From Thalassospira sp. TSL5-1 (GTDB taxonomy: Bacteria > Pseudomonadota > Alphaproteobacteria > Rhodospirillales > Thalassospiraceae), in assembly GCF_001907695.1 (NCBI RefSeq), contig NZ_KV880638.1, positions 1,426,882 to 1,490,881 on the forward strand: a stretch of DNA of 64,000 nucleotides. Reading direction: 5' to 3'. The notes under the pieces were generated by a model. It saw only the letters and a list, made by a program, of their open reading frames with translations, had not been told where the DNA came from and did not search any database. Below, piece after piece: positions 24,331-37,346 of this stretch; positions within the stretch are counted from its first letter, which is position 1, and every line of letters begins with the position of its first letter. Made by a program: the position numbers and the translations under genes.

Positions 24331-25650
24331 TTATTTCATTATCCGGGCGCGGGCTTGTCGAAAGGTATCTTGCAGCCCCTTGTGACCAGTGCCGAGGCTG
24401 TCGATACAATAGGGATTGAGAAATTGCCGCCCTGCAAACAGGGTGCGATCAACTGGCGAGAGTTGTGCGGTTTTACAGATATGGTCCCATTGATCGGCGA
24501 TGGTGGTCATTTGCTGCTCGATGATTGATGCGGCTTCATCTTCACGCAGGTGATAATCGGCCGCTGCGGCAAGGCAGCTTGCTATTGTGCTGGCCCGTTT
24601 GTCGTCTTTGATCAGCATGGCCTGTGTGGCCTCGTTGCCGGTGCGCCCCTGGGGGCAAATGTCATAGGCGGGGGTGAGGTGCAGCATCCTGCCATCCCAA
24701 AATGCGGCATGGTTGCGGGCGTGATCGTCCGTATTGCCGCACAGGATGTTAAAACTTATCCGGCCATAAAGCTCTTTGAGGGTTTTTTTGGGGGCTGCAA
24801 AACGATGTCGGATGATTTCGGCCAGATCTTCATAGGACGCATATCGGGCCATCATTTCATCCAGACCCAACAGGGTCAGGGCCGAAACCATCGCTTTGCG
24901 TGTCCAGCCTCCTTGGGTTTGAAGGCGGTCAAACCGCTCGATCAGCAAGGTATCTTTGTTGGCGGCCTGCGTCAGGGATACAGGCGCAACATTCAATCCG
25001 CACAGTTTTGCCAGGCGCATGGCGATAAATTCGGCTTTTACAACGCTATACAGGTCTGAGCTGGACGAGAATTTGGCAACAAATTTCTTCTGCCCATCCT
25101 TGATTAGGGCTTTGGGGCGGGCGCCGCCAATCGATGTGCGGTGATTGATTGCCAGATCAAGGGCCGGGGGGAGGGGCAGGCCCTTTTCCACATGATCCGC
25201 CGCATGTTGCAAATCTTCAAGTATTGCTTCTGCCGCCTGTCTGGGCTGGTAGTGTGTGGCCGATGTTTGAAAATCCAGTGCACCGATCCGGTCTGACCCG
25301 GATTGCAAAAGAAAGGTCAGTTCATTGAAGGACGGGGCATGGGCCGCATTTGGTTTGTTGCCTGTCAATTTGTTGATGATCACCCGTCTTCCCCAGGCAT
25401 CGGGGGACGCATCACGCAGGCTGCTTGCCATTGTCAAACCTGCAAGGGGGGCGATGGTTCCCTGGCGCAGGGGGAGTTCCGGGCTGTAAATTGCGATGGC
25501 ATTTTCGCGGCTGCGATAGCTTGCCCCATAGGTAAAAACCAGCCGGTCGCCGTCTTGTGTGATACGTCCGGCAACGACAGGCTCCGTCTCGCCGGGCAAC
25601 CATATCCAGACATAGGCTTCCCGCGCTTCGGTAACATCAGAAGTCATCAT
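24331..25650 (-). CDS. hipA: HipA family serine/threonine kinase toxin
   Basis: A 439-residue HipA-type kinase. The N-terminal subdomain (GETEPVVAGRITQDGDRLVFTYGASY) is followed by the HipA_N/HipA_C kinase. The Gly-rich loop is TSIGGARPKALI, the ATP lysine region KKFVAKFSS, the catalytic loop CGNTDDHARNHAAFW and the metal-binding LTPAYDICPQ. All key kinase residues seem present, so it should be active. Characterised HipA phosphorylates glutamyl-tRNA synthetase and causes growth arrest. A strong AGGAGG precedes tandem ATGs (25650 and 25647). The start lies inside the 3' end of hipB (14-bp overlap). Together with hipB it interrupts the MoxR-VWA pair. Confidence 0.9.
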   Translation of the reverse strand: MMTSDVTEAREAYVWIWLPGETEPVVAGRITQDGDRLVFTYGASYRSRENAIAIYSPELPLRQGTIAPLAGLTMASSLRDASPDAWGRRVIINKLTGNKPNAAHAPSFNELTFLLQSGSDRIGALDFQTSATHYQPRQAAEAILEDLQHAADHVEKGLPLPPALDLAINHRTSIGGARPKALIKDGQKKFVAKFSSSSDLYSVVKAEFIAMRLAKLCGLNVAPVSLTQAANKDTLLIERFDRLQTQGGWTRKAMVSALTLLGLDEMMARYASYEDLAEIIRHRFAAPKKTLKELYGRISFNILCGNTDDHARNHAAFWDGRMLHLTPAYDICPQGRTGNEATQAMLIKDDKRASTIASCLAAAADYHLREDEAASIIEQQMTTIADQWDHICKTAQLSPVDRTLFAGRQFLNPYCIDSLGTGHKGLQDTFRQARARIMK

Positions 25651-25969
25651 CCACCTCCTGTGTCACTGGCCGCACTGCTTGCGGCATAAGTGTCAGTTTT
25701 TCGCGAAGGCGGGTCTCCTGCAGGGCCACAACCCGGTCATCGGCGTCAAATAACGGCACGCCAACAAGATGGGCGACCTCAAATACCGTGCCAATTTCAG
25801 GGCCGGGCGCACCCTTTTCAATATTGTGCAGGGTGGTGCGGCTAATACCCGCCCGATCCGCCAGTTCCTGCGCTGTCATGTTGCGTTCCGTTCGGCCAAT
25901 ACGGATCATGCTGCCTAAAATAGACAAGGCATGACGGGTGGTGCGCGAGTAGCTTCTTTTGCGTTTCAT
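25637..25969 (-). CDS. hipB: HipB-type antitoxin (XRE family HTH)
   Basis: A 110-residue DNA-binding protein with an XRE/Cro helix-turn-helix at residues about 23-70 (MIRIGRTERNMTAQELADRAGISRTTLHNIEKGAPGPEIGTVFEVAHLVGV). It lies directly upstream of and overlapping hipA, the usual antitoxin-first order. It should bind HipA and repress the operon. Perfect inverted repeats lie just upstream of its start (separate entries). The extended C-terminus (residues 75-110, ending EVDDDF) may contact HipA. Confidence 0.88.
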   Translation of the reverse strand: MKRKRSYSRTTRHALSILGSMIRIGRTERNMTAQELADRAGISRTTLHNIEKGAPGPEIGTVFEVAHLVGVPLFDADDRVVALQETRLREKLTLMPQAVRPVTQEVDDDF

Positions 25970-26250: not shown

Positions 26251-27435
26251 ATGTTCACCGGTTTTTTCTACAAGCTCAAAGAGGCCCGGGTGCCGGTCAG
26301 TTTGCGGGAATATCTGACGCTGCTTGAAGCGATGGAAAAGGGGGTGGCCGGATATTCGGTCGAGGATTTTTATTACCTTTCCCGGGCGTCGCTGGTGAAG
26401 GACGAACGCAACCTTGATAAGTTTGATCAGGTCTTTGGGGCGCATTTCAAGGGCCTTGCCAGTCTGGCCGACGCGGGGGCGGAAATTTCGGCGGAAATCC
26501 CCGAAGAATGGTTGGGCAAACTGGCCGAGAAATATTTAAGTGACGAAGAAAAGGCACAAATCCAGTCCCTTGGGGGCTGGGACAAGCTGATGGAAACATT
26601 AAAGCAGCGCCTGGAAGAACAGAAAAAACGCCATCAGGGCGGCAATAAATGGATTGGCACGGCTGGCACATCGCCTTTTGGCGCTTATGGTTATAATCCC
26701 GAAGGGGTGCGTATCGGGCAGGATAAATCGCGCCATCGTCGGGCGGTCAAGGTGTGGGATAAACGCGAATTTAAAAACCTGGATGACAGCGTTGAAATTG
26801 GCACCCGCAACATCAAGGTGGCGTTGCGCAAACTCCGCAAATGGGCGCGCACCGGTGCGGCCGACGAGTTGGACCTGGCAGGCACCATCCGCTCAACGGC
26901 CCGGCAGGGCTGGCTGGATGTACAAATGCGGCCCGAACGGCACAATGCGGTAAAGGTTTTGATGCTGTTTGATATTGGCGGCTCGATGGATGATTATATC
27001 CGCGTGTGCGAGGAACTGTTTTCGGCGGTGAAAACCGAATTCAAGCATCTGGAATATTATTATTTCCACAACTGCCCCTATGAAGGTTTGTGGAAGGACA
27101 ATGCGCGTCGCCGCAGCGAACAGATTTCAACGCTGGATGTGATCAATACCTATTCCAGTGATTACAAACTGGTTTTCGTCGGCGATGCCACCATGAGCCC
27201 TTATGAAATTACCTATCCCGGTGGCTCCGTCGAACACTGGAATGCCGAGGCAGGCCAGGTCTGGATGCAGCGCCTGCTGGATCATTTTCAACACGCCGCC
27301 TGGATTAACCCCCAGCCGGAAAAATGGTGGCACTACACCCCCTCGATCCAGCTTTTGCACAAGATGATGGAAGGCCGGATGTATCCGCTGACCCTGGAGG
27401 GGTTGGATCGGATGACGGGCGAATTGTCTCGTTAG
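26251..27435 (+). CDS. CoxE-like VWA domain protein, MoxR partner
   Basis: A 394-residue protein. The N-terminal 200 residues are the CoxE/COG3825-like domain (FYKLKEARVPVSLREYLTLLEAMEKGV, SKHRRAVKVWDKREFKN-type region near 165-180). The C-terminal part is a von Willebrand A fold starting at VKVLMLFDIGGSMDDYI. The metal site reads D-I-G-G-S rather than the canonical D-x-S-x-S, so metal binding may be altered. It normally follows a MoxR ATPase gene; here 1925 bp including hipBA separate them. A GGATGGAAG site precedes the ATG. Expected role: cofactor insertion or complex assembly with MoxR; the target is unknown. Confidence 0.87.
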   Translation: MFTGFFYKLKEARVPVSLREYLTLLEAMEKGVAGYSVEDFYYLSRASLVKDERNLDKFDQVFGAHFKGLASLADAGAEISAEIPEEWLGKLAEKYLSDEEKAQIQSLGGWDKLMETLKQRLEEQKKRHQGGNKWIGTAGTSPFGAYGYNPEGVRIGQDKSRHRRAVKVWDKREFKNLDDSVEIGTRNIKVALRKLRKWARTGAADELDLAGTIRSTARQGWLDVQMRPERHNAVKVLMLFDIGGSMDDYIRVCEELFSAVKTEFKHLEYYYFHNCPYEGLWKDNARRRSEQISTLDVINTYSSDYKLVFVGDATMSPYEITYPGGSVEHWNAEAGQVWMQRLLDHFQHAAWINPQPEKWWHYTPSIQLLHKMMEGRMYPLTLEGLDRMTGELSR

Positions 27436-27568
27436 AATCTAATGCTGACTTGTCGATGAGAATTTCGTTATTTAGAATTAATTTATTTTTTTTGCAAGTT
27501 TTTTTTTCTTGAAAAAATGCCATGTTGATGTGTTAATAGCTGTAATGGTATTTTTATAGGTAAGTGTT

Positions 27569-28609
27569 ATGGCAAAAATAATAAATTTGTTTAATCATAA
27601 GGGCGGTGTGAGTAAAACGACAACGGTATTTAATCTTGGGTGGATGCTGGGGAGCCTTGGTAAGCGTGTCATTATTGCTGATTTTGATCCTCAATGTAAT
27701 CTGACAGGAATGGTTTTAGGATTTAAAGGTGTCGAGGACTTGGATGGTGTGTACACTTCTAGTCCAGCGAATAATGTTAAAGACGCACTCTCCCCAGCCT
27801 TTGAGTCTAAACCATTCAAAATAGATGGCTCAGAGTGCATGTGTGTTAATGGGAATGGAAACCTTTTTTTGTTGCCAGGGCATATTGGAATAGCGGAATA
27901 TGAGACAACACTAGGTATTGCTCAGGAGCTCAGCGGTTCCCTTCTTGCTCTTAAAAATCTTCCTGGGTCTATTCGTTATATGTTGGACCGTACAGCCGAG
28001 AAATATAATGCAGACTTTGTGTTGGTTGATATGAGTCCCAGCCTGGGGCCAATTAATCAGAATCTCTTGATGACAAGTGATCATTTCATCGTGCCACTTC
28101 ATCCTGACTATTTTTCTTCAATGGCATTGTCATCTCTTACAAAGACGTTACCTCGTTGGAAGAAATGGGCAACCACAGCTAGTTCTCTCGATGTTTTGAC
28201 TGACGCAGATTATCCTTTTCCAAACACAAATACGTCATTTATCGGCGCGATCGTTCAAAAATATAGGCCGCGTAATGGTAGGGCAAGCAGCGCATTTCAG
28301 CATTGGATCGATGATTTGACCTCAGGTTTGAAAGATAAATTAATTCCAATGTTAATCGAAAATGATTTGCTTGATGCGGTTTTGTTCGAAGAAATTACGG
28401 GGTCAAAGCCATGGAATCCTATTCTGGAAGTTGCTGATTTTAATAGTTTAATTGCATTGTCTCAAGAGCATCAAGTTCCAGTTTATGCGCTTGAGAAAAG
28501 CAAGGTTAACCAAACGGGTGCAGTTTGGGATCAGACGGAGAGGTCAATGAGTGCTTTTGAAAAAGCATTCCGTGACTGTGCCGAGAATGTGATTTTGCTT
28601 TCGGAATAG
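27569..28609 (+). CDS. ParA/MinD-type ATPase of an A+T-rich two-gene island
   Basis: A 346-residue P-loop ATPase. The deviant Walker A is NHKGGVSKTTT at residues 9-19, the Walker A' region ADFDPQCNLTGM and Walker B FVLVDMSPSLGPIN near residues 150-162, as in ParA/Soj (AAA_31). It is longer than chromosomal ParA (about 260) and contains insertions at residues about 50-90 and 195-260, with a C-terminal extension. It has no ParB partner; instead a HEPN-like gene follows after 6 bp. Codon use and base composition (lines with about 40% G+C) differ from the flanking genes, suggesting horizontal transfer. It is not the chromosome-partition ParA. Confidence 0.8.
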   Translation: MAKIINLFNHKGGVSKTTTVFNLGWMLGSLGKRVIIADFDPQCNLTGMVLGFKGVEDLDGVYTSSPANNVKDALSPAFESKPFKIDGSECMCVNGNGNLFLLPGHIGIAEYETTLGIAQELSGSLLALKNLPGSIRYMLDRTAEKYNADFVLVDMSPSLGPINQNLLMTSDHFIVPLHPDYFSSMALSSLTKTLPRWKKWATTASSLDVLTDADYPFPNTNTSFIGAIVQKYRPRNGRASSAFQHWIDDLTSGLKDKLIPMLIENDLLDAVLFEEITGSKPWNPILEVADFNSLIALSQEHQVPVYALEKSKVNQTGAVWDQTERSMSAFEKAFRDCAENVILLSE

Positions 28610-28615
28610 TTGTAA

Positions 28616-29242
28616 ATGAAGCCGATTCAATATTATGAGGGAGTATGGTCTAGGTGTGACCAGCTGCAGTCTCTATTTTTGTATTTAAATAGCAATACAT
28701 CTAGTGTTGTTGACTTAAGTGATTTGTTGCGTGCCGAGTGGTCGATGAGAGTCAGCGCACTCGATCTTTACGTGCATGAACTGGTTGCTCAAAATATGTT
28801 GTCGATATTTCAAGGAAATAGGGCCATTTGTGATGGCTTTCAGCGTTATAAATTGAAAGCGAGTACTTTGCTGAGAATTAGGGGTTCTGTAAATGCTTTT
28901 GAAGTAGATAATGCATTTGATTTAGATGTCCGTGAGTATCTAAGTGCGTTAACTTTTCAAAGATCAAATAGTATTGCGGACGGAGTCAGGATGATCTCTC
29001 CTATAGTATTGTGGGACGCTGTTTGTCAAATTCTGGGTGCCGACGGAAGGTCTTTGAAAAACATGAAGCAGGATATTAAGTCTCAGTTAGACTTAATTTG
29101 CGATAGAAGAAATAAGATTGTGCATGAGGGTGATTTGAATAATACTTTTCCTCGAGGGTTGAGACCTGTTGCGCGCGGTGAGGTTGACTTTGTCAAAATG
29201 CATATTGATCGCATCGTGAGGGCAATTGATTCGTGTGTTTGA
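28616..29242 (+). CDS. HEPN-like protein (RiboL-PSP-HEPN type) paired with the ParA-like ATPase
   Basis: A 208-residue mostly helical protein. The N-terminal helix LLRAEWSMRVSALDLYVHELVAQ and the C-terminal ICDRRNKIVHEGDLN fit the RiboL-PSP-HEPN pattern. R165-x4-H170 gives the R-x4-6-H motif that forms the active site of HEPN ribonucleases. It starts 6 bp after the ParA-like stop, so the two are one transcription unit. Base composition is low in G+C (lines of 37-43%). HEPN RNases are common effectors in toxin-antitoxin and antiphage systems, so an ATPase-controlled RNase is a reasonable guess. No search was possible; the family call is from motif and layout. Confidence 0.65.
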   Translation: MKPIQYYEGVWSRCDQLQSLFLYLNSNTSSVVDLSDLLRAEWSMRVSALDLYVHELVAQNMLSIFQGNRAICDGFQRYKLKASTLLRIRGSVNAFEVDNAFDLDVREYLSALTFQRSNSIADGVRMISPIVLWDAVCQILGADGRSLKNMKQDIKSQLDLICDRRNKIVHEGDLNNTFPRGLRPVARGEVDFVKMHIDRIVRAIDSCV

Positions 29243-29327
29243 GGATAAAACATCGTTGTTCTCGTGTGCGATTATTTTTGATCTAATTTTGGGTTTTGTT
29301 TCATGAATATACATTTGATTTGAATGT

Positions 29328-29744
29328 TTACGTAGGCCCCAAAAACAAATAGGTTTCGGTTTTGGCAATGCCGTCCATACTGCGGATATGGGTAACGATG
29401 CGGTTAAATTCCGGCAGGCTGCCAACTTTAACCTCAGCAATCAGGTCCCATTCACCATTGGTGGTGTGAAGGGTGCGAAAGCTGAGGGTTTTGCGTAATG
29501 TTGCCACTAGGGCCTTCACGTTGCGACCCGAGAGCTCCATCATTATCACCCCGCGAATGGTGCCATCACTGGCATCTTCGTGCAATCGCACGGTGTAACC
29601 GGCAATGACGCCGTTTTGTTCGAGACGGGTCATGCGCGATTTTACCGTGCCCGGTGCCACGCCCAAAAGGTCGGCCAGTTTGGGCACCGATGCGCGGGCA
29701 TTAATGCGCAATTCGGCAATCAGGCTGCGGTCCAGATCGTCCAT
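29328..29744 (-). CDS. Lrp/AsnC family transcriptional regulator
   Basis: A 138-residue regulator, slightly shorter than Lrp. The N-terminal winged HTH is LDRSLIAELRINARASVPKLADLLGVAPGTVKSRMTRLEQNGVIAGYTVRL (residues 3-53). The C-terminal RAM/AsnC domain (VIMMELSGRNVKALVATLRKTLSFRTLHTTNGEWDLIAEVKVGSLPEFNRIVTHIRSM) binds amino acids. It is divergent from a RocB-like peptidase gene (122-bp gap to the chosen start), which it probably regulates in response to an amino acid, possibly arginine or ornithine. That last point is inferred from position. Confidence 0.9.
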   Translation of the reverse strand: MDDLDRSLIAELRINARASVPKLADLLGVAPGTVKSRMTRLEQNGVIAGYTVRLHEDASDGTIRGVIMMELSGRNVKALVATLRKTLSFRTLHTTNGEWDLIAEVKVGSLPEFNRIVTHIRSMDGIAKTETYLFLGPT

Positions 29745-29866
29745 TTTTGGGGTTCATTGCTGTTTTCGTCAGTGTATGGCGTATAATTGCATTGATTCTG
29801 CATTTTCATTGGCGGGGCATCGCGCTAATTTGGCGCTTTGATGCAATGTCAGGCAGGAAAACAATC

Positions 29867-31540
29867 ATGAGCGCAGCAACAGGCCACTGGGCCCCCGAAG
29901 CCCGCACCCGCGACATTGCCGAACGTCTGACCCGCTGGCCCAGTGTGACCGGCACCAGGGACGAGGCCGATTTTGCCGAAAAGCTGGTGGGGCTGCTGCG
30001 TGAAATTCCCTATTTTCAGGAAAATCCCGATGACATTGCCGTTATTGACAGCCATCTGGTTGCAAATGGCACGGCAATGGCAAAAAATGTGGTGGCGCTG
30101 GTGCGCGGAACCGGGCGCAAAACCCTGGCGCTGGCCGGGCATTATGATGTTGTCTCGATTGAGAATTTCCATGACCTACAACATCTGGCCTTTTCGCCCG
30201 ATGAACTCTGCGCCGCCCTGATTGCCGATCTTTCCAGCCGGTCTGATTTGACTGCCAAGGAAGAATTCGCCCTGCGTGATTTGCAAAGTGGGGATTTCGT
30301 TCCCGGTCGCGGGCTTTTGGATATGAAAAGCGGCGATGCGGCGGGTATTGCCTTTCTGGAGCATTTCGCTTGTCAGGCAGACTGCAATGGCAATGTGGTG
30401 CTGTGTCTGACCCCGGATGAAGAACGCAACAGTTGCGGTATGCGCAGCCTGCGCAATGCTTTGCCCGAACTGGTGCGCCGCTGGGACATTGATATTGTCG
30501 GCGGCATTAACCTTGATGCCAGCAGTGATTACGAAAATGGCGAAATCGGCCGGGCGATTTTTCATGGCTCGATCGGCAAGATCATGCCCTTTGCCATGAT
30601 TGTTGGCCAGCCGACCCATGTGGGTTATCCGTTTGACGGGATCAGCGCCCATGTCATGAGTGCCGAAATCATGCAGGCGATAGAGGGCAATAATGACCTG
30701 TCTGATCATGCCCGCAACGTAACCGCCCCGCCGCCGGTATGCCTGGAATGCCGGGATTTGCGCGAAAATTACGAAGTCACCACGCCCGAACATGTCTGGA
30801 TGGCGTTCAACTGGTTGATACAAAGTAAATCGGCCAGCGATGCCCTGGGTGAATTTGCCGATATTGTTAAAACAACTGCCAATCGGGCGCTGGATCGTTT
30901 GTTTGACCGCGCCACCCGGCACGCCGAAGCCAATGGTGAACCCGCGCCAATGGCCTATCGCCCGCTGGAGGTTATTTCCTATGCGCAGTTAATCGAGATG
31001 GCGAGAACGGTTGGCGGGGAGGCGGGGATGGCCCGTATTGCGGCGGTGGAGGATGAATACCGCTACAGTAACAATCCGTTGTTACGTTCGCGTATGCTGG
31101 TATTGGCCGCAATGGCCGAGGCCCGGTTGCAGGCCCCGGCGATTATTACCGGCAATGCCAGCCTGCATTACCCGGCGGTTCATCTCGATACAGATAGAAA
31201 ACTGGATCGTGATTTTATCGAAGCCATCCATGAAGCCCGGCAGATAATCGAGGCGCGTCATGACACCAAAATCATTGATCGGGGTTATTTTGGCGGCATT
31301 TCGGATATGTCTTTTTTCGGAAAATGTCCAGAAAGTGACGAATCGAAAGTTATCGCCGAAAATACCCCGGTAGGGGAGTTGGTGGACCAGCCAGTGGCCG
31401 ATGCGCTGGAATATCCGGTGGTCAATATTGGCCCGTGGGGGCGCGAATATCATCAGCGTCTGGAGCGGCTTTATGCGCCTTATTGTTATAAGGTTCTGCC
31501 GGATTTTCTGTCTGAAATAGCCAAAAAACTGCTAGCTTAA
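29867..31540 (+). CDS. M20 family peptidase, RocB-like
   Basis: A 557-residue M20/M28-type metallopeptidase resembling RocB, the protein of arginine utilisation. Zinc-site motifs are visible: AGHYDVVS (His), GRGLLDMKSGDAAG (bridging Asp), LTPDEERNSCGMRS (catalytic Glu-Glu), GINLDASSDYENG, and a lid region with IVGQPTHVGYPFDG. The long frame is open to 29747, but the ATG at 29867 follows AGGAAA and fits the family start; an ATG at 29846 is the alternative. It is divergent from the Lrp-type gene. The substrate is likely a peptide or amidated amino acid; not proven. Confidence 0.85.
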   Translation: MSAATGHWAPEARTRDIAERLTRWPSVTGTRDEADFAEKLVGLLREIPYFQENPDDIAVIDSHLVANGTAMAKNVVALVRGTGRKTLALAGHYDVVSIENFHDLQHLAFSPDELCAALIADLSSRSDLTAKEEFALRDLQSGDFVPGRGLLDMKSGDAAGIAFLEHFACQADCNGNVVLCLTPDEERNSCGMRSLRNALPELVRRWDIDIVGGINLDASSDYENGEIGRAIFHGSIGKIMPFAMIVGQPTHVGYPFDGISAHVMSAEIMQAIEGNNDLSDHARNVTAPPPVCLECRDLRENYEVTTPEHVWMAFNWLIQSKSASDALGEFADIVKTTANRALDRLFDRATRHAEANGEPAPMAYRPLEVISYAQLIEMARTVGGEAGMARIAAVEDEYRYSNNPLLRSRMLVLAAMAEARLQAPAIITGNASLHYPAVHLDTDRKLDRDFIEAIHEARQIIEARHDTKIIDRGYFGGISDMSFFGKCPESDESKVIAENTPVGELVDQPVADALEYPVVNIGPWGREYHQRLERLYAPYCYKVLPDFLSEIAKKLLA

Positions 31541-35153: not shown

Positions 35154-36026
35154 ATGAAAAATGACGATGTTAACCTGCGCAAGGTCGCCCGGACAATCCG
35201 GGCAATGGATACCTCGGATGGGGCCGGTGTGCGCCTGAAACGGTCTGTTGGCTCGCCTGCTTTGCCAATGCTCGATCCGTTTTTGATGCTGGACTCGATC
35301 TCCAGCGACAAGGCGGATGACTATATTGCCGGTTTCCCCGAACATCCCCATCGGGGCTTTGAAACCGTGACCTATATGGTCGAAGGGGCGATGCGCCATA
35401 ATGACAGCATTGGGTCAGAGGGCGTTTTACGCTCTGGCGGGGTGCAGTGGATGACGGCCGGCAGCGGCATTATCCATTCCGAAACGCCAGAACAGGAAGA
35501 TGGCCTGTTGCAGGGTTTTCAGCTTTGGATCAACCTGCCCGCCAAGGACAAAATGCAACGTCCGCGTTACCAGAACCTGGAGGCCCATGAGGTTGCCGAA
35601 GTCAGCCCGGCAGCAGGCGTGGATATTCGTCTGGTCGCCGGTTCCGCCTTTGGCAAAACCGGGCCGGTCTCGGGTATTTCGACCGAACCGGTGTTTATGG
35701 ATGTCAAACTGGCGCCCAATGCCGAAGTGACCCTGCCAGTGCCAGAGGGGCACGCCGCCCTTGTCTATATGTTCATTGGCGATGGCGAGGTTGCCGGTCG
35801 TTCCCTGCCCACCCATCATCTGGCGGTGCTCAAGGATGGCAATGCGGTATTGCTGAAGGGCGGTAGCGAAGGCGGACGATTGTTGCTGATTGCGGCCGCA
35901 CCGATTGACGAACCCATTGCCCGTCACGGTCCGTTTGTAATGAACACCCGCGAAGAACTGATGCAGGCCTTTGAAGATTTCCAGCGCGGCCGCTTCGTGC
36001 GCGAAAAAGCCGTCGGACAGGGCTGA
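35154..36026 (+). CDS. Pirin family protein
   Basis: A 290-residue bicupin of the pirin family. The N-terminal cupin has the metal motif FPEHPHRGFETVTYMVEGAMRHNDSIGSEGVLRSGGVQWMTAGSGIIHSE (metal ligands His-x-His...Glu...His). QGFQLWINLPAKDKMQRPRYQ follows and the second cupin is metal-free. Bacterial pirins include quercetin dioxygenases and metabolic regulators; the role here is unknown. GGGAGC lies upstream of the ATG. A strong terminator follows. Confidence 0.93.
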   Translation: MKNDDVNLRKVARTIRAMDTSDGAGVRLKRSVGSPALPMLDPFLMLDSISSDKADDYIAGFPEHPHRGFETVTYMVEGAMRHNDSIGSEGVLRSGGVQWMTAGSGIIHSETPEQEDGLLQGFQLWINLPAKDKMQRPRYQNLEAHEVAEVSPAAGVDIRLVAGSAFGKTGPVSGISTEPVFMDVKLAPNAEVTLPVPEGHAALVYMFIGDGEVAGRSLPTHHLAVLKDGNAVLLKGGSEGGRLLLIAAAPIDEPIARHGPFVMNTREELMQAFEDFQRGRFVREKAVGQG

Positions 36027-36062
36027 CGTTACGTTATTTCGGCAAAAGAAACGCATTTCAAG

Positions 36063-36104
36063 CACAACGGGCGAGGGAGTTTACTCCTTCGCCCGTTGTG
36101 TTTT
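36063..36104 (+). terminator. Rho-independent terminator after the pirin gene
   Basis: A 17-bp stem with one G-T pair (36063-36079 with 36084-36100; outer arm CACAACGGGCGA / TCGCCCGTTGTG) and loop TTTA, followed by TTTTG. Confidence 0.93.
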
Positions 36105-36171
36105 GTGTCATCATCAAAATGCGATATGATGACAATACATTTGGTAAAACGAGTTTGTTTATAGCCTGATC

Positions 36172-36672
36172 ATGACGCCCGAGCATTACATAGATAGGTT
36201 GCTGCAAAAATATCAAAAATATCCAGGTTTTCCCTTTGACGACTGGGTGCAAAACGCGGGTTCGTTTTATGCGCTTATCAATATTTGGGATGAAATTTTC
36301 AAAGCTTCTGCCGGAAAATTATTTGCCGATTATGTTGCTTATGGTGATGCACAACAGGATGAATACTCGTTCATTTATCGAGTTAAACATGTAAAGAAGA
36401 ATGCTGTTGTTTGGATTACTCCATCCTGGCCTGCGTTAAAAACGAAGATTGGCGGTGATGGCGGGATTCTTGAAACGGTATATCCGCCGGAGATGCAGCC
36501 AAGGGATGACAAGTATGAGTTGAATATCAATTCAGACCTGGATAGAGACCGTCTCGTTTGTTTCTTTGAAATGATCAGGCATTTTATCCACAATCTTCCG
36601 GAAAATAGTGTTGATGTAGAACGCCACAATAAGATGTACATCGAGAGATATGGAAAATACTTTGGTTGGTGA
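36172..36672 (+). CDS. Unknown protein, first of two tandem paralogues
   Basis: A 166-residue soluble protein not recognised. It aligns along its length with the next gene. Both start MTPE--ID-LL-KY-K-P-FPF-DW, share S/A-AG and G-A-QQ--S-IY, then a block D-ELxxxxDL-RDRLVC-F-MI and end RYGKYFG. There is no signal peptide or membrane segment. The base composition is A+T-rich (one line counted at 40% G+C), unlike the pirin gene upstream, which suggests acquisition. Small helical/beta paralogues like this are sometimes orphan immunity proteins; that is only a thought, as no toxin gene is nearby. Confidence 0.7.
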   Translation: MTPEHYIDRLLQKYQKYPGFPFDDWVQNAGSFYALINIWDEIFKASAGKLFADYVAYGDAQQDEYSFIYRVKHVKKNAVVWITPSWPALKTKIGGDGGILETVYPPEMQPRDDKYELNINSDLDRDRLVCFFEMIRHFIHNLPENSVDVERHNKMYIERYGKYFGW

Positions 36673-36791
36673 GATTTTAATTTATATAATGCGCCGTTGT
36701 TTTGTGATGCTGGTATGAAAGATGATAGGATAAAATTTTTTCTATTCGCATGATATGTAAATGTAAATTTTAAGTAATTTAGTTGCGAAAT

Positions 36792-37346
36792 ATGACGCCG
36801 GAAACCTGCATTGACGCACTTCTTGAAAAATACAAAAAGATTCCAGACTTTCCCTTCGGGGATTGGTCGGAGAACTTTGTTTCTTTTGGTGTTTTGAAAA
36901 AATTATGGGGCGAGGTCTTTTCTGCTGCTGCAGGGACGAACAAACAAGGTTACAAAGCTTTAGGTGAAGCAACACAACAAAAAGATTCGTATATCTACCA
37001 AATATATGAATCTGGTTCGAGAAAGAAATTCCGGGTGACATATAGTGAAAAGGGCGGAACTTTTCATGTTCTAACAAACATTGTTGATCCGGGGCTGGAA
37101 GATTTGGATGAATATGAGTTGGGATTTGTTGTGGATTTGGAACGAGATAGGCTGGTCTGTTGTTTTAAGATGATCCAGTATTACGTTTCAAGATCGATAA
37201 AAAATGACAATGATCTCAGGGCTATGAATGAAATGTTTGTCGATCGCTATGGGAAATATTTTGGTTTTGAGAATTATAATCCGTTCAATTCACCTTTGTT
37301 TCCCGTCACCGAGATAGAAGATGACGATGATGAGGAGCTGCTTTGA
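36792..37346 (+). CDS. Unknown protein, second of two tandem paralogues
   Basis: A 184-residue paralogue of the preceding protein, beginning MTPETCIDALLEKYKKIPDFPFGDW. I start at the ATG at 36792, which matches the paralogue's start; a TTG three codons earlier is open. It shares DLERDRLVCCFKMIQYY and VDRYGKYFGF with copy 1. It has an extra 20-residue C-terminal tail that ends in an acidic run (EIEDDDDEELL). A+T-rich (one line counted at 37% G+C). The 119-bp gap between copies is very A+T-rich and contains no gene. Function unknown. Confidence 0.7.
   Translation: MTPETCIDALLEKYKKIPDFPFGDWSENFVSFGVLKKLWGEVFSAAAGTNKQGYKALGEATQQKDSYIYQIYESGSRKKFRVTYSEKGGTFHVLTNIVDPGLEDLDEYELGFVVDLERDRLVCCFKMIQYYVSRSIKNDNDLRAMNEMFVDRYGKYFGFENYNPFNSPLFPVTEIEDDDDEELL

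What the first reader, a model, noticed from the sequence alone, without database searches (positions are those of the whole stretch)
27569..29242. ParA-type ATPase paired with a HEPN-like protein in a two-gene A+T-rich island
The ATPase has a deviant Walker A (KGGVSKTTT) and no ParB partner. Six bases after its stop begins a protein with R165-x4-H170 (RNKIVH) and an N-terminal helix of the RiboL-PSP-HEPN kind. Hand counts of three lines give 37-43% G+C, below most flanking lines. HEPN RNases are established effectors in toxin-antitoxin and antiphage systems; P-loop ATPases often act as their sensors. The pair looks like a self-contained conflict module. That it is a defence system, and that it is undescribed, is inference.
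Basis: partly seen in the sequence, partly recalled or inferred. Interest (0 to 1): 0.75.

Follow-up and report, generated by a model that had tools for sequence, protein, structure and literature searches.

The report
Mobile ParA–HEPN toxin-antitoxin-like gene pair
Two neighbouring genes, a ParA-like ATPase and a predicted RNA-cutting HEPN protein, recur together in bacteria of many phyla, in phages and on plasmids, and probably act as a self-poisoning stress or anti-phage switch of a kind predicted in outline in 2013.

Summary
27569-28609 (+) is a ParA/Soj-fold ATPase with KGGVSKTTT; six bases on, 28616-29242 (+) is a HEPN protein (Pfam RiboL-PSP-HEPN, above cut-off) with R165-x4-H170. The pair fills the most A+T-rich stretch of its size in the window. 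The HEPN gene is missing from 28 of 28 other genomes of the genus; at the site some have nothing, two that were read have a MarR-GNAT gene.

It is not an isolated oddity. The same two-gene operon turned up in about ten phyla, filamentous phage Pf1, other phage contigs and Burkholderia plasmids. In a tree of 93 ATPases the 64 paired with HEPN lie on one side of one branch (support 100/99); the two proteins' distance matrices correlate (r 0.85); R165 and H170 do not vary in 52 pairs. No ParB gene was found within 10 kb in 19 genomes.

Most likely it is a mobile toxin-antitoxin or abortive-infection module: a HEPN RNase held by the ATPase. Anantharaman et al. (2013) predicted such a ParA/Soj-HEPN dyad, but for the MAE_18760 HEPN family; this HEPN tests as RiboL-PSP. 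Hence a new variant of a predicted kind; I found no experiment on it. Toxicity, neutralisation and phage defence are inference.

The parts
27436..29327 (.). A+T-rich island between the stop of a VWA_CoxE-domain gene (26251-27435 +) and the stop of an Lrp/AsnC-type gene (29328-29744 -)
   Evidence: 39.3% G+C; flanking genes by Pfam; the site holds 52, 22 and 49 bases in L082, L083 and L084 and a MarR-GNAT gene in L077 and L079
27436..27568 (+). A+T-rich leader that should hold the promoter; sigma-70-like match 27450-27478, not more than shuffles give
   Evidence: sequence; scan of 27380-29400: 7 promoter-like sites found, 5.1 expected
27569..28609 (+). ParA/Soj-like ATPase, 346 aa, P-loop from residue 11 so no N-terminal HTH; predicted regulator or antitoxin
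   Evidence: Pfam AAA_31 3.5e-29; AF2 pLDDT 93.3; Foldseek Soj/ParA, best 2.6e-13
27599..27625 (+). deviant Walker A KGGVSKTTT, residues 11-19; K16 in 52 of 52, K11 in 51 of 52, S15 in 49 of 52 pairs
28610..28615 (+). six-base gap between the two genes (close operon)
   Evidence: 42 of 46 recovered pairs have gaps of -17 to +25 nt
28616..29242 (+). HEPN protein, 208 aa, RiboL-PSP-HEPN family; predicted RNase toxin or effector
   Evidence: Pfam PF18735 above cut-off, matched by 52 of 52 aligned relatives; AF2 pLDDT 96.8; ten best rows of the structural alignment are HEPN-fold chains, Z 8.1-9.4
29108..29125 (+). predicted RNase motif R165-x4-H170 (RNKIVH)
   Evidence: R165 and H170 invariant in 52 of 52; R-x4-H in 17 of 17 pairs reached through the ATPase (six of these contigs were also in the HEPN-recruited set)

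Best explanation
A horizontally mobile two-gene toxin-antitoxin or abortive-infection module. Shown: a ParA/Soj-fold ATPase gene in tight operon with a HEPN gene that keeps the R-x4-H motif; the two diverge together; the unit sits in phages, on plasmids and, in this genus, at a chromosomal site that is empty or otherwise filled in relatives. Inferred: the HEPN protein dimerises and cuts RNA, the ATPase (made first) binds it and holds it inactive in a nucleotide-dependent way, and a disturbance such as phage attack, DNA damage or loss of the ATPase frees the RNase, which stops translation and growth. On a prophage or plasmid this would protect or addict the carrier; in the chromosome it would work as an acquired defence or stress gene.
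For: HEPN family and fold; the nearest solved structures include HepT-MntA complexes, whose antitoxin also uses ATP (abstract of PMC7641770). R39, A48, D50, H54, Q115, R165, I168, H170 and D173 are invariant in 52 of 52. ATPase first, HEPN second, close or overlapping in 42 of 46, the order usual for antitoxin-toxin operons (PMC3710099, passage). In a careful tree of 93 ATPases the 64 paired with HEPN lie on one side of one branch, support 100/99 and in 200 of 200 bootstrap trees (a quicker tree of 78 rows agrees). Distance matrices of the two proteins correlate, r 0.848, 0 of 5000 permutations as high. G+C is lower than in the flanks in 30 of 34 loci, median -9.5 points. The pair is in phages Pf1 and WX-TY, on Burkholderia plasmids, 9 of 13 HEPN-bearing records typed conjugative (two opened), and in viral contigs beside repressors, terminases and portals. 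Sporadic: HEPN gene absent from 28 of 28 genus mates and no DNA match to the island in any of them. A Spirochaetales genome keeps an intact pair (L028) and a broken second one (L054).
Against: No activity, toxicity or neutralisation was or could be tested. PADLOC has no model for the window's HEPN, and no enrichment of defence neighbours was shown. The wider ATPase lineage occurs without HEPN in many phages and some genomes, so the ATPase does something that does not need this HEPN. Congruence of the two proteins includes common descent; I made no species-tree control. The HEPN set was partly recruited with a pattern over the R-x4-H motif. Four rows of the tree are long, one of them HEPN-paired (L051).
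Confidence: 0.6

Rival explanations
1. Sensor-effector defence system rather than toxin-antitoxin: the ATPase is the activator. It binds invading or damaged DNA (or a phage protein) as an ATP dimer and switches on an otherwise quiet HEPN RNase, so both genes are needed for harm.
For: ParA-fold proteins bind DNA unspecifically (recalled; a pNOB8 ParA-DNA structure is among the Foldseek matches). The wider ATPase lineage has other neighbours: a protein that looks cyclase-like to me in 4 viral loci (L158, L159, L160, L164) and a SocA/Panacea-domain gene 203 nt on in L148, as if one switch served several effectors. In phage SE1 and in an E. coli KE47 record a lone relative lies one gene after, or directly after, a CI-type repressor gene.
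Against: ATPase-first order and the 2013 analogy to MNT-HEPN favour an antitoxin role; no experiment separates the two.
Confidence: 0.25
2. Partition or positioning remnant: an orphan ParA with a HEPN protein as its cargo or adaptor, not a conflict gene.
For: ParA/Soj fold; orphan ParA proteins that position cargo are known (recalled; also said in PMC9879122, passage).
Against: No ParB_N match within 10 kb of the ATPase in 19 of 19 genomes, as far as the contigs reach; the nearest is a weaker one 11.3 kb off in Methylobacterium. Centromere-binding proteins without a ParB_N domain were not sought. The predicted RNase motif is invariant.
Confidence: 0.07
3. The HEPN protein is a non-catalytic binding partner and the pair is a regulatory module of the mobile element (for example of lysogeny in Pf-type phages).
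For: In viral contigs the commonest annotated neighbours are repressors and regulators.
Against: Strict conservation of R165 and H170, including R-x4-H in 17 of 17 pairs reached through the ATPase.
Confidence: 0.08

Closest known systems
ParA/Soj + HEPN (MAE_18760 family) dyad, predicted toxin-antitoxin system, Anantharaman et al. 2013, PMC3710099
   Same: ParA/Soj-like ATPase gene in operon with a HEPN gene that keeps the RNase motif; ATPase postulated as antitoxin (passages)
   Different: HEPN here matches RiboL-PSP in 52 of 52 and MAE_28990/MAE_18760-like weakly in 4 of 52. In my samples PF18737 HEPN genes had a DUF262/GmrSD_N-like gene in 24 of 36 loci and a ParA in 0 of 36 (loci of about 3.7 kb or less; 4 of the 24 checked by Pfam). 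The 2013 table lists Ribo L-PSP-HEPN with 'ParB', not ParA. The two dyads may still be one; the 2013 sequences were not at hand.
HEPN-MNT (HepT-MntA) toxin-antitoxin system
   Same: Nucleotide-using partner gene plus HEPN RNase toxin; same HEPN fold
   Different: The partner is a ParA-type ATPase, not a nucleotidyltransferase; no MNT domain
RiboL-PSP-HEPN / MAE_28990 HEPN next to DUF262 (Pfam GmrSD_N) genes
   Same: Same Pfam HEPN families
   Different: Different partner; ParA-paired HEPN genes are a minority: 4 of 45 places examined, of 48 found in 398 genomes
Pf1 phage Orf317 ('similar to Soj') and the ORF after it
   Same: ATPase 38% identical; the following ORF is a HEPN relative with RRNSIVH, not annotated in the record
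   Different: Phage-borne; HEPN ORF 175 aa in this record
Gifsy-1 STM14_3218-3220 of S. Typhimurium 14028s (PMC9879122, passages)
   Same: [quoted passage not shown] deletion raised phage titres 2- to 4-fold
   Different: Sequence not in my collections, so homology was not tested; gene lengths 840, 309 and 663 bp
DIP2308, PDB 3pg5, uncharacterised ParA-like protein
   Same: Best sequence match of the ATPase profile among solved structures (3.6e-31), similar length (361 aa)
   Different: No partner or function known from my calls

Membership tests
RiboL-PSP-HEPN (PF18735) | match above curated cut-off | tested here: met
   33.3 bits against 28.4; 52 of 52 aligned relatives match at E 0.01 or better
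HEPN RNase superfamily | R-x4-6-H motif conserved | tested here: met
   52 of 52; 17 of 17 in pairs reached through the ATPase; part of the 52 was recruited with a pattern over this motif
HEPN RNase superfamily | all-helical HEPN fold | tested here: met
   pLDDT 96.8; ten best structural rows are HEPN-fold chains, Z 8.1-9.4, next 6.7. Against: the tool warns that helical bundles can reach such Z by chance, and Foldseek alone gave no match under 0.001
HEPN RNase superfamily | metal-independent RNA cleavage | not testable with these tools
   needs an enzyme assay
ParA/Soj + HEPN (MAE_18760) dyad of 2013 | ParA/Soj-like gene adjacent to a HEPN gene | tested here: met
   39 of 45 genome loci and 7 of 8 viral loci recruited by the HEPN proteins
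ParA/Soj + HEPN (MAE_18760) dyad of 2013 | HEPN belongs to the MAE_18760 family | tested here: not met
   window protein has no PF18737 match at E 1; 4 of 52 relatives match weakly, best 4.9e-4; three cyanobacterial members match RiboL-PSP, not PF18737. Pfam's model lumps MAE_28990 and MAE_18760, so the test is indirect
Toxin-antitoxin system | second protein toxic, first neutralises it | not testable with these tools
   needs co-expression
HEPN-MNT (type VII) toxin-antitoxin | MNT nucleotidyltransferase partner | tested here: not met
   partner is AAA_31/ParA, Soj fold
ParAB-parS partition system | ParB gene beside parA | tested here: not met
   no ParB_N match within 10 kb in 19 of 19 genomes searched, some on short contigs
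Known anti-phage defence system (PADLOC-DB 2.0.0) | match to a system's models | tested here: not met
   no HEPN hit at E 1; the ATPase only a 36-residue hit to PDC-M28B at 5.9e-5; 13 of 52 HEPN relatives hit RTasHEPN weakly, best 7.3e-5

The most novel reading that the evidence does not exclude
A ParA-type ATPase lineage has been turned into a general conflict switch: its ATP-bound dimer on DNA reports that the nucleoid is intact and holds an exchangeable effector silent (HEPN RNase here, a cyclase-like protein in other phages), and loss of DNA or ATP during phage attack releases the effector. The same logic might explain ParB-less prophage ParA genes such as those in Pf1, P22-like phages and Gifsy-1.
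Probability: 0.15. Interest if true: 0.85.

Novelty: new variant of a known kind. Interest (0 to 1): 0.55.

Why it matters
It defines a compact, widespread two-gene family, consistent with a single origin, that can be tested directly, with a member in the classical filamentous phage Pf1 whose HEPN half is not annotated in the record seen. If the ATPase controls the RNase, it would be a use of the ParA fold outside partition and positioning, and would give ParB-less prophage parA genes a function.

Tried and rejected
Partition remnant: rejected for lack of ParB. Defence-island membership: neighbours of 34 genome-contig pairs (122 proteins) matched PADLOC families at 1e-10 with one or two members each, and Pfam families were heterogeneous (25 of 160 shown); no control set was run, so neither enrichment nor absence is claimed. 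Identity with the 2013 MAE_18760 dyad: 0 of 36 PF18737 loci from 398 genomes of the window's phylum, a sample of 145 from the class of a cyanobacterial genome and three cyanobacterial genomes had a ParA neighbour; not settled, since the 2013 sequences were not at hand. Ser15 as a mark of HEPN pairing: rejected; it is also found in ATPases without HEPN (the viral set was recruited with a pattern that contains it). HEPN scan of viral contigs with the single window protein: no relative. DNA-level search of plasmids: one 148-base match to a lone ParA in an E. coli record. E. coli genomes, DNA search with the B. glumae pair: no match. Foldseek on the HEPN model: no match under 0.001. Promoter and terminator scans: no more than shuffles give. 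Direct repeats at the island ends: none in the two end stretches. Gifsy-1 homology: wanted, not testable here.

Dropped before counts: of 48 PF18735 places, 45 were examined (G090:C34, G373 and G299 were not). In one search, 6 of 45 genome loci had no ATPase ORF upstream: L019 (contig start; probably the other half of L055, same bin), L048 and L050 (an AAA_21 ATPase upstream), L049 (fragment), L054 (both genes present but broken) and L056 (none). Four gaps over +25 nt (L036, L045, L046, L051) are partly start-codon choice: three have a nearer in-frame start, L046 has none. The tree used 22 of the 62 viral ATPases without HEPN (4 of the 22 with the cyclase-like partner), plus L009, L010, L229 and L225-L228; the viral scan itself kept the best 80 of 94. 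Only 2 of the 13 plasmid records were opened. In the genus, 11 of 28 genomes show the downstream flank on the same contig near the VWA gene; 12 site regions were fetched and ORFs read in two; L078 (1068 bases between the flanks), L080 (410) and others were not worked out.

Full report
What is there. The window holds two adjacent genes on the plus strand. 27569-28609 encodes a 346-residue ATPase with the deviant Walker A KGGVSKTTT; 28616-29242 encodes a 208-residue protein with R165-NKIV-H170; six bases separate them. Pfam places the first in AAA_31 (3.5e-29) and the second in HEPN_RiboL-PSP above its cut-off. The island between the neighbouring genes, a VWA_CoxE-domain gene and an Lrp/AsnC-type regulator, has 39.3% G+C against 53.9% for the window; the pair lies about four standard deviations below windows of its size. 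No tRNA gene was found in the window and no direct repeats in the two end stretches.

An acquired insert. The HEPN protein finds no match in 28 of 28 other genomes of the genus and 31 of 31 of the order in a set of 60. A DNA search with 26300-30200 finds the VWA gene in 29 of 29 genomes of the genus, own included, and no match to the island in the other 28; 11 of these 28 show the downstream flank on the same contig, about 30 to 1160 bases from the end of the VWA match. In three that I read (L082, L083, L084) 52, 22 and 49 bases lie between the aligned flanks. In L077 and L079 a MarR-GNAT gene of 337 and 357 codons fills the place. The site is thus variable between species. This genome has one ATPase of this kind at 1e-60 and its only ParB_N match is 1.26 Mb away.

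Structure. With 52 aligned sequences AlphaFold2 gives mean pLDDT 96.8 for the HEPN protein and 93.3 for the ATPase. Foldseek finds Soj, ParA and the uncharacterised DIP2308 for the ATPase (best 2.6e-13). For the helical HEPN model Foldseek alone finds nothing significant, but realignment of its candidates puts ten HEPN-fold chains first, Z 8.1 to 9.4, then a step to 6.7; they are SO_3166-SO_3165/HepT-MntA, other HEPN-MNT toxin structures and HI0074. The tool warns that such Z values are not by themselves decisive for helical bundles; together with the Pfam match and the invariant motif I take the assignment as firm.

The pair is a family. tblastn found the HEPN protein in phages Pf1 and WX-TY and in 13 Burkholderia plasmid records. 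In the four records I opened for it the same ATPase lies directly upstream (L005, L006, L007, L008). In the Pf1 record the HEPN ORF is not annotated and the ATPase is called Orf317, similar to Soj. A scan of genome contigs gave 45 relatives: 39 have the ATPase immediately upstream, as do 7 of 8 viral loci. Gaps are -17 to +25 nt in 42 of 46. By record titles and NCBI ranks the pairs come from Pseudomonadota, Poribacteria, Parcubacteria, Bacteroidota, Actinomycetota, Campylobacterota, Spirochaetota, Chloroflexota, Cyanobacteriota and Thermodesulfobacteriota, with one cut by a contig end in a Nitrospirae bin; many are metagenome bins, which can be mis-assigned. Prevalence is low: HEPN of Pfam PF18735 in 46 of 398 genomes of the phylum, the ATPase beside it in 4 of 45 places examined; the ATPase lineage (1e-80) in 6 of 385 genomes of the class, HEPN beside it in 2.

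Coupled evolution. In a careful tree of 93 ATPases, with relatives without HEPN from phages, an E. coli record and four genomes of the window's class, the 64 paired with HEPN lie on one side of one branch (bootstrap 100, SH-aLRT 99; 200 of 200 bootstrap trees; shuffled mean 25.0 changes); four rows are long, L051 among the HEPN-paired. A quicker tree of 78 rows agreed, with a long-branch warning elsewhere in it. Without a root this is consistent with one origin, not proof of it. Pairwise distances of the two proteins correlate with r 0.848; the largest of 5000 permutations was 0.17. This contains common descent and no species-tree control was made. R39, A48, D50, H54, Q115, R165, I168, H170 and D173 are invariant in 52 of 52 HEPN proteins; K16, D38, D40 and D154 in 52 of 52 ATPases. 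Part of the HEPN set was recruited with a pattern over RRN-IVHE; in 17 pairs reached through the ATPase 17 keep R-x4-H, though six of those contigs were also in the HEPN set.

Where it lives. The pair has lower G+C than its flanks in 30 of 34 loci, median -9.5 points. In 18 viral loci (102 neighbouring ORFs) the PHROG families with most members are repressors and regulators, then single-strand binding protein, head protease, terminases and portals (25 of 134 families shown), as around temperate-phage immunity regions. Chromosomal neighbours are mixed. Other members of the ATPase lineage in viral contigs lack HEPN: of 79 loci, 17 have HEPN downstream (L063 is an eighteenth), 4 a protein with a motif near VAFxDxLGF that looks cyclase-like to me (from memory; no Pfam match), and the others no HEPN or such partner.

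Mechanism. Best supported is a toxin-antitoxin or abortive-infection module, with the HEPN protein as RNase and the ATPase as its nucleotide-dependent keeper. Fold, motif, order, tight coupling and mobility are shown; toxicity, binding, neutralisation, target RNA and trigger are inferred. The main rival is that the ATPase is the sensor that turns HEPN on. A parallel, untested here, is Gifsy-1 of S. Typhimurium 14028s, where a ParB-less ParA-like gene and two unknown genes are required for activation of RtcR by what is thought to be cleaved tRNA, and their deletion raises phage titres (PMC9879122, passages). RtcB is present in the window's genome, which by itself means little.

Comparison with the literature. 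Anantharaman and colleagues (PMC3710099, passages) described a less common dyad of a MAE_18760 HEPN gene with a ParA/Soj-like ATPase and proposed that the ATPase is the antitoxin. The HEPN here is not of that family by Pfam, and PF18737 HEPN genes in my samples stand next to DUF262-like genes in 24 of 36 loci (by motif; four checked as GmrSD_N by Pfam) and next to a ParA in 0 of 36. Ten searches of the held library, for HEPN with ParA, ParA-like, defence, toxin, antitoxin, inovirus, Pf1 and Soj, for RiboL-PSP, MAE_18760, pair names and RtcR with Gifsy-1, listed no paper that I recognised as an experimental study of this pair. Of the papers listed I saw passages of six (PMC3710099, PMC9879122, PMC5512222, PMC7159879, PMC11437467, PMC2701414) and the abstract of PMC7641770; the rest only as listings. 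The library lacks most subscription journals.

Verdict. Observation confirmed; interpretation largely right in kind, too strong on being undescribed and on defence. A new variant of a predicted kind on which I found no experiment, of moderate interest.

Noticed in passing
window 36172-37346 (+): A second A+T-rich stretch (39.8% G+C in 36001-37000) with two small similar proteins of 166 and 187 aa that share MTPExxIDxLLxKYxKxPxFPFxDW near the start; no hit above a Pfam cut-off and none in PADLOC or NCBIfam. Perhaps immunity proteins or another small mobile module.
   Followed up: no
window 24331-25969 (-): A HipA-type kinase with an HTH partner (HipBA-like toxin-antitoxin pair), just beyond the VWA gene upstream of the finding.
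   Followed up: no
L158:5041-5760, L159:1617-2300, L160:5069-5716, L164:5068-5739: The wider ATPase lineage is paired in viral contigs with a protein of 215-239 aa bearing a motif near VAFxDxLGF, cyclase-like to my eye, without Pfam match; these four ATPases form their own clade.
   Followed up: partly
L009:3968-5074 (Salmonella phage SE1) and L229:3502-4578 (E. coli KE47 record): Lone relatives of the ATPase close downstream of a CI-type repressor gene, the place of rex-like lysogen genes (recalled), without HEPN.
   Followed up: partly
L008:5025-5552 (phage Pf1, AY324828.1): The HEPN ORF after Orf317 is not annotated in this record.
   Followed up: yes
L148:5251-5760: A SocA/Panacea-domain antitoxin-like gene starts 203 nt after an ATPase of the lineage.
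   Followed up: no
L225, L226, L227, L228: Genomes of the window's class with a KGGVSKTTT ATPase but no HEPN relative in the roughly 4 kb read around it.
   Followed up: no
L054 and L028: One Spirochaetales genome holds an intact pair and a second, broken pair.
   Followed up: no
L048:6605-7918 and L050:6605-7918: In two Peptostreptococcus genomes a distant HEPN relative follows an AAA_21 ATPase (AbiEii-like by Pfam description) instead of a ParA.
   Followed up: no
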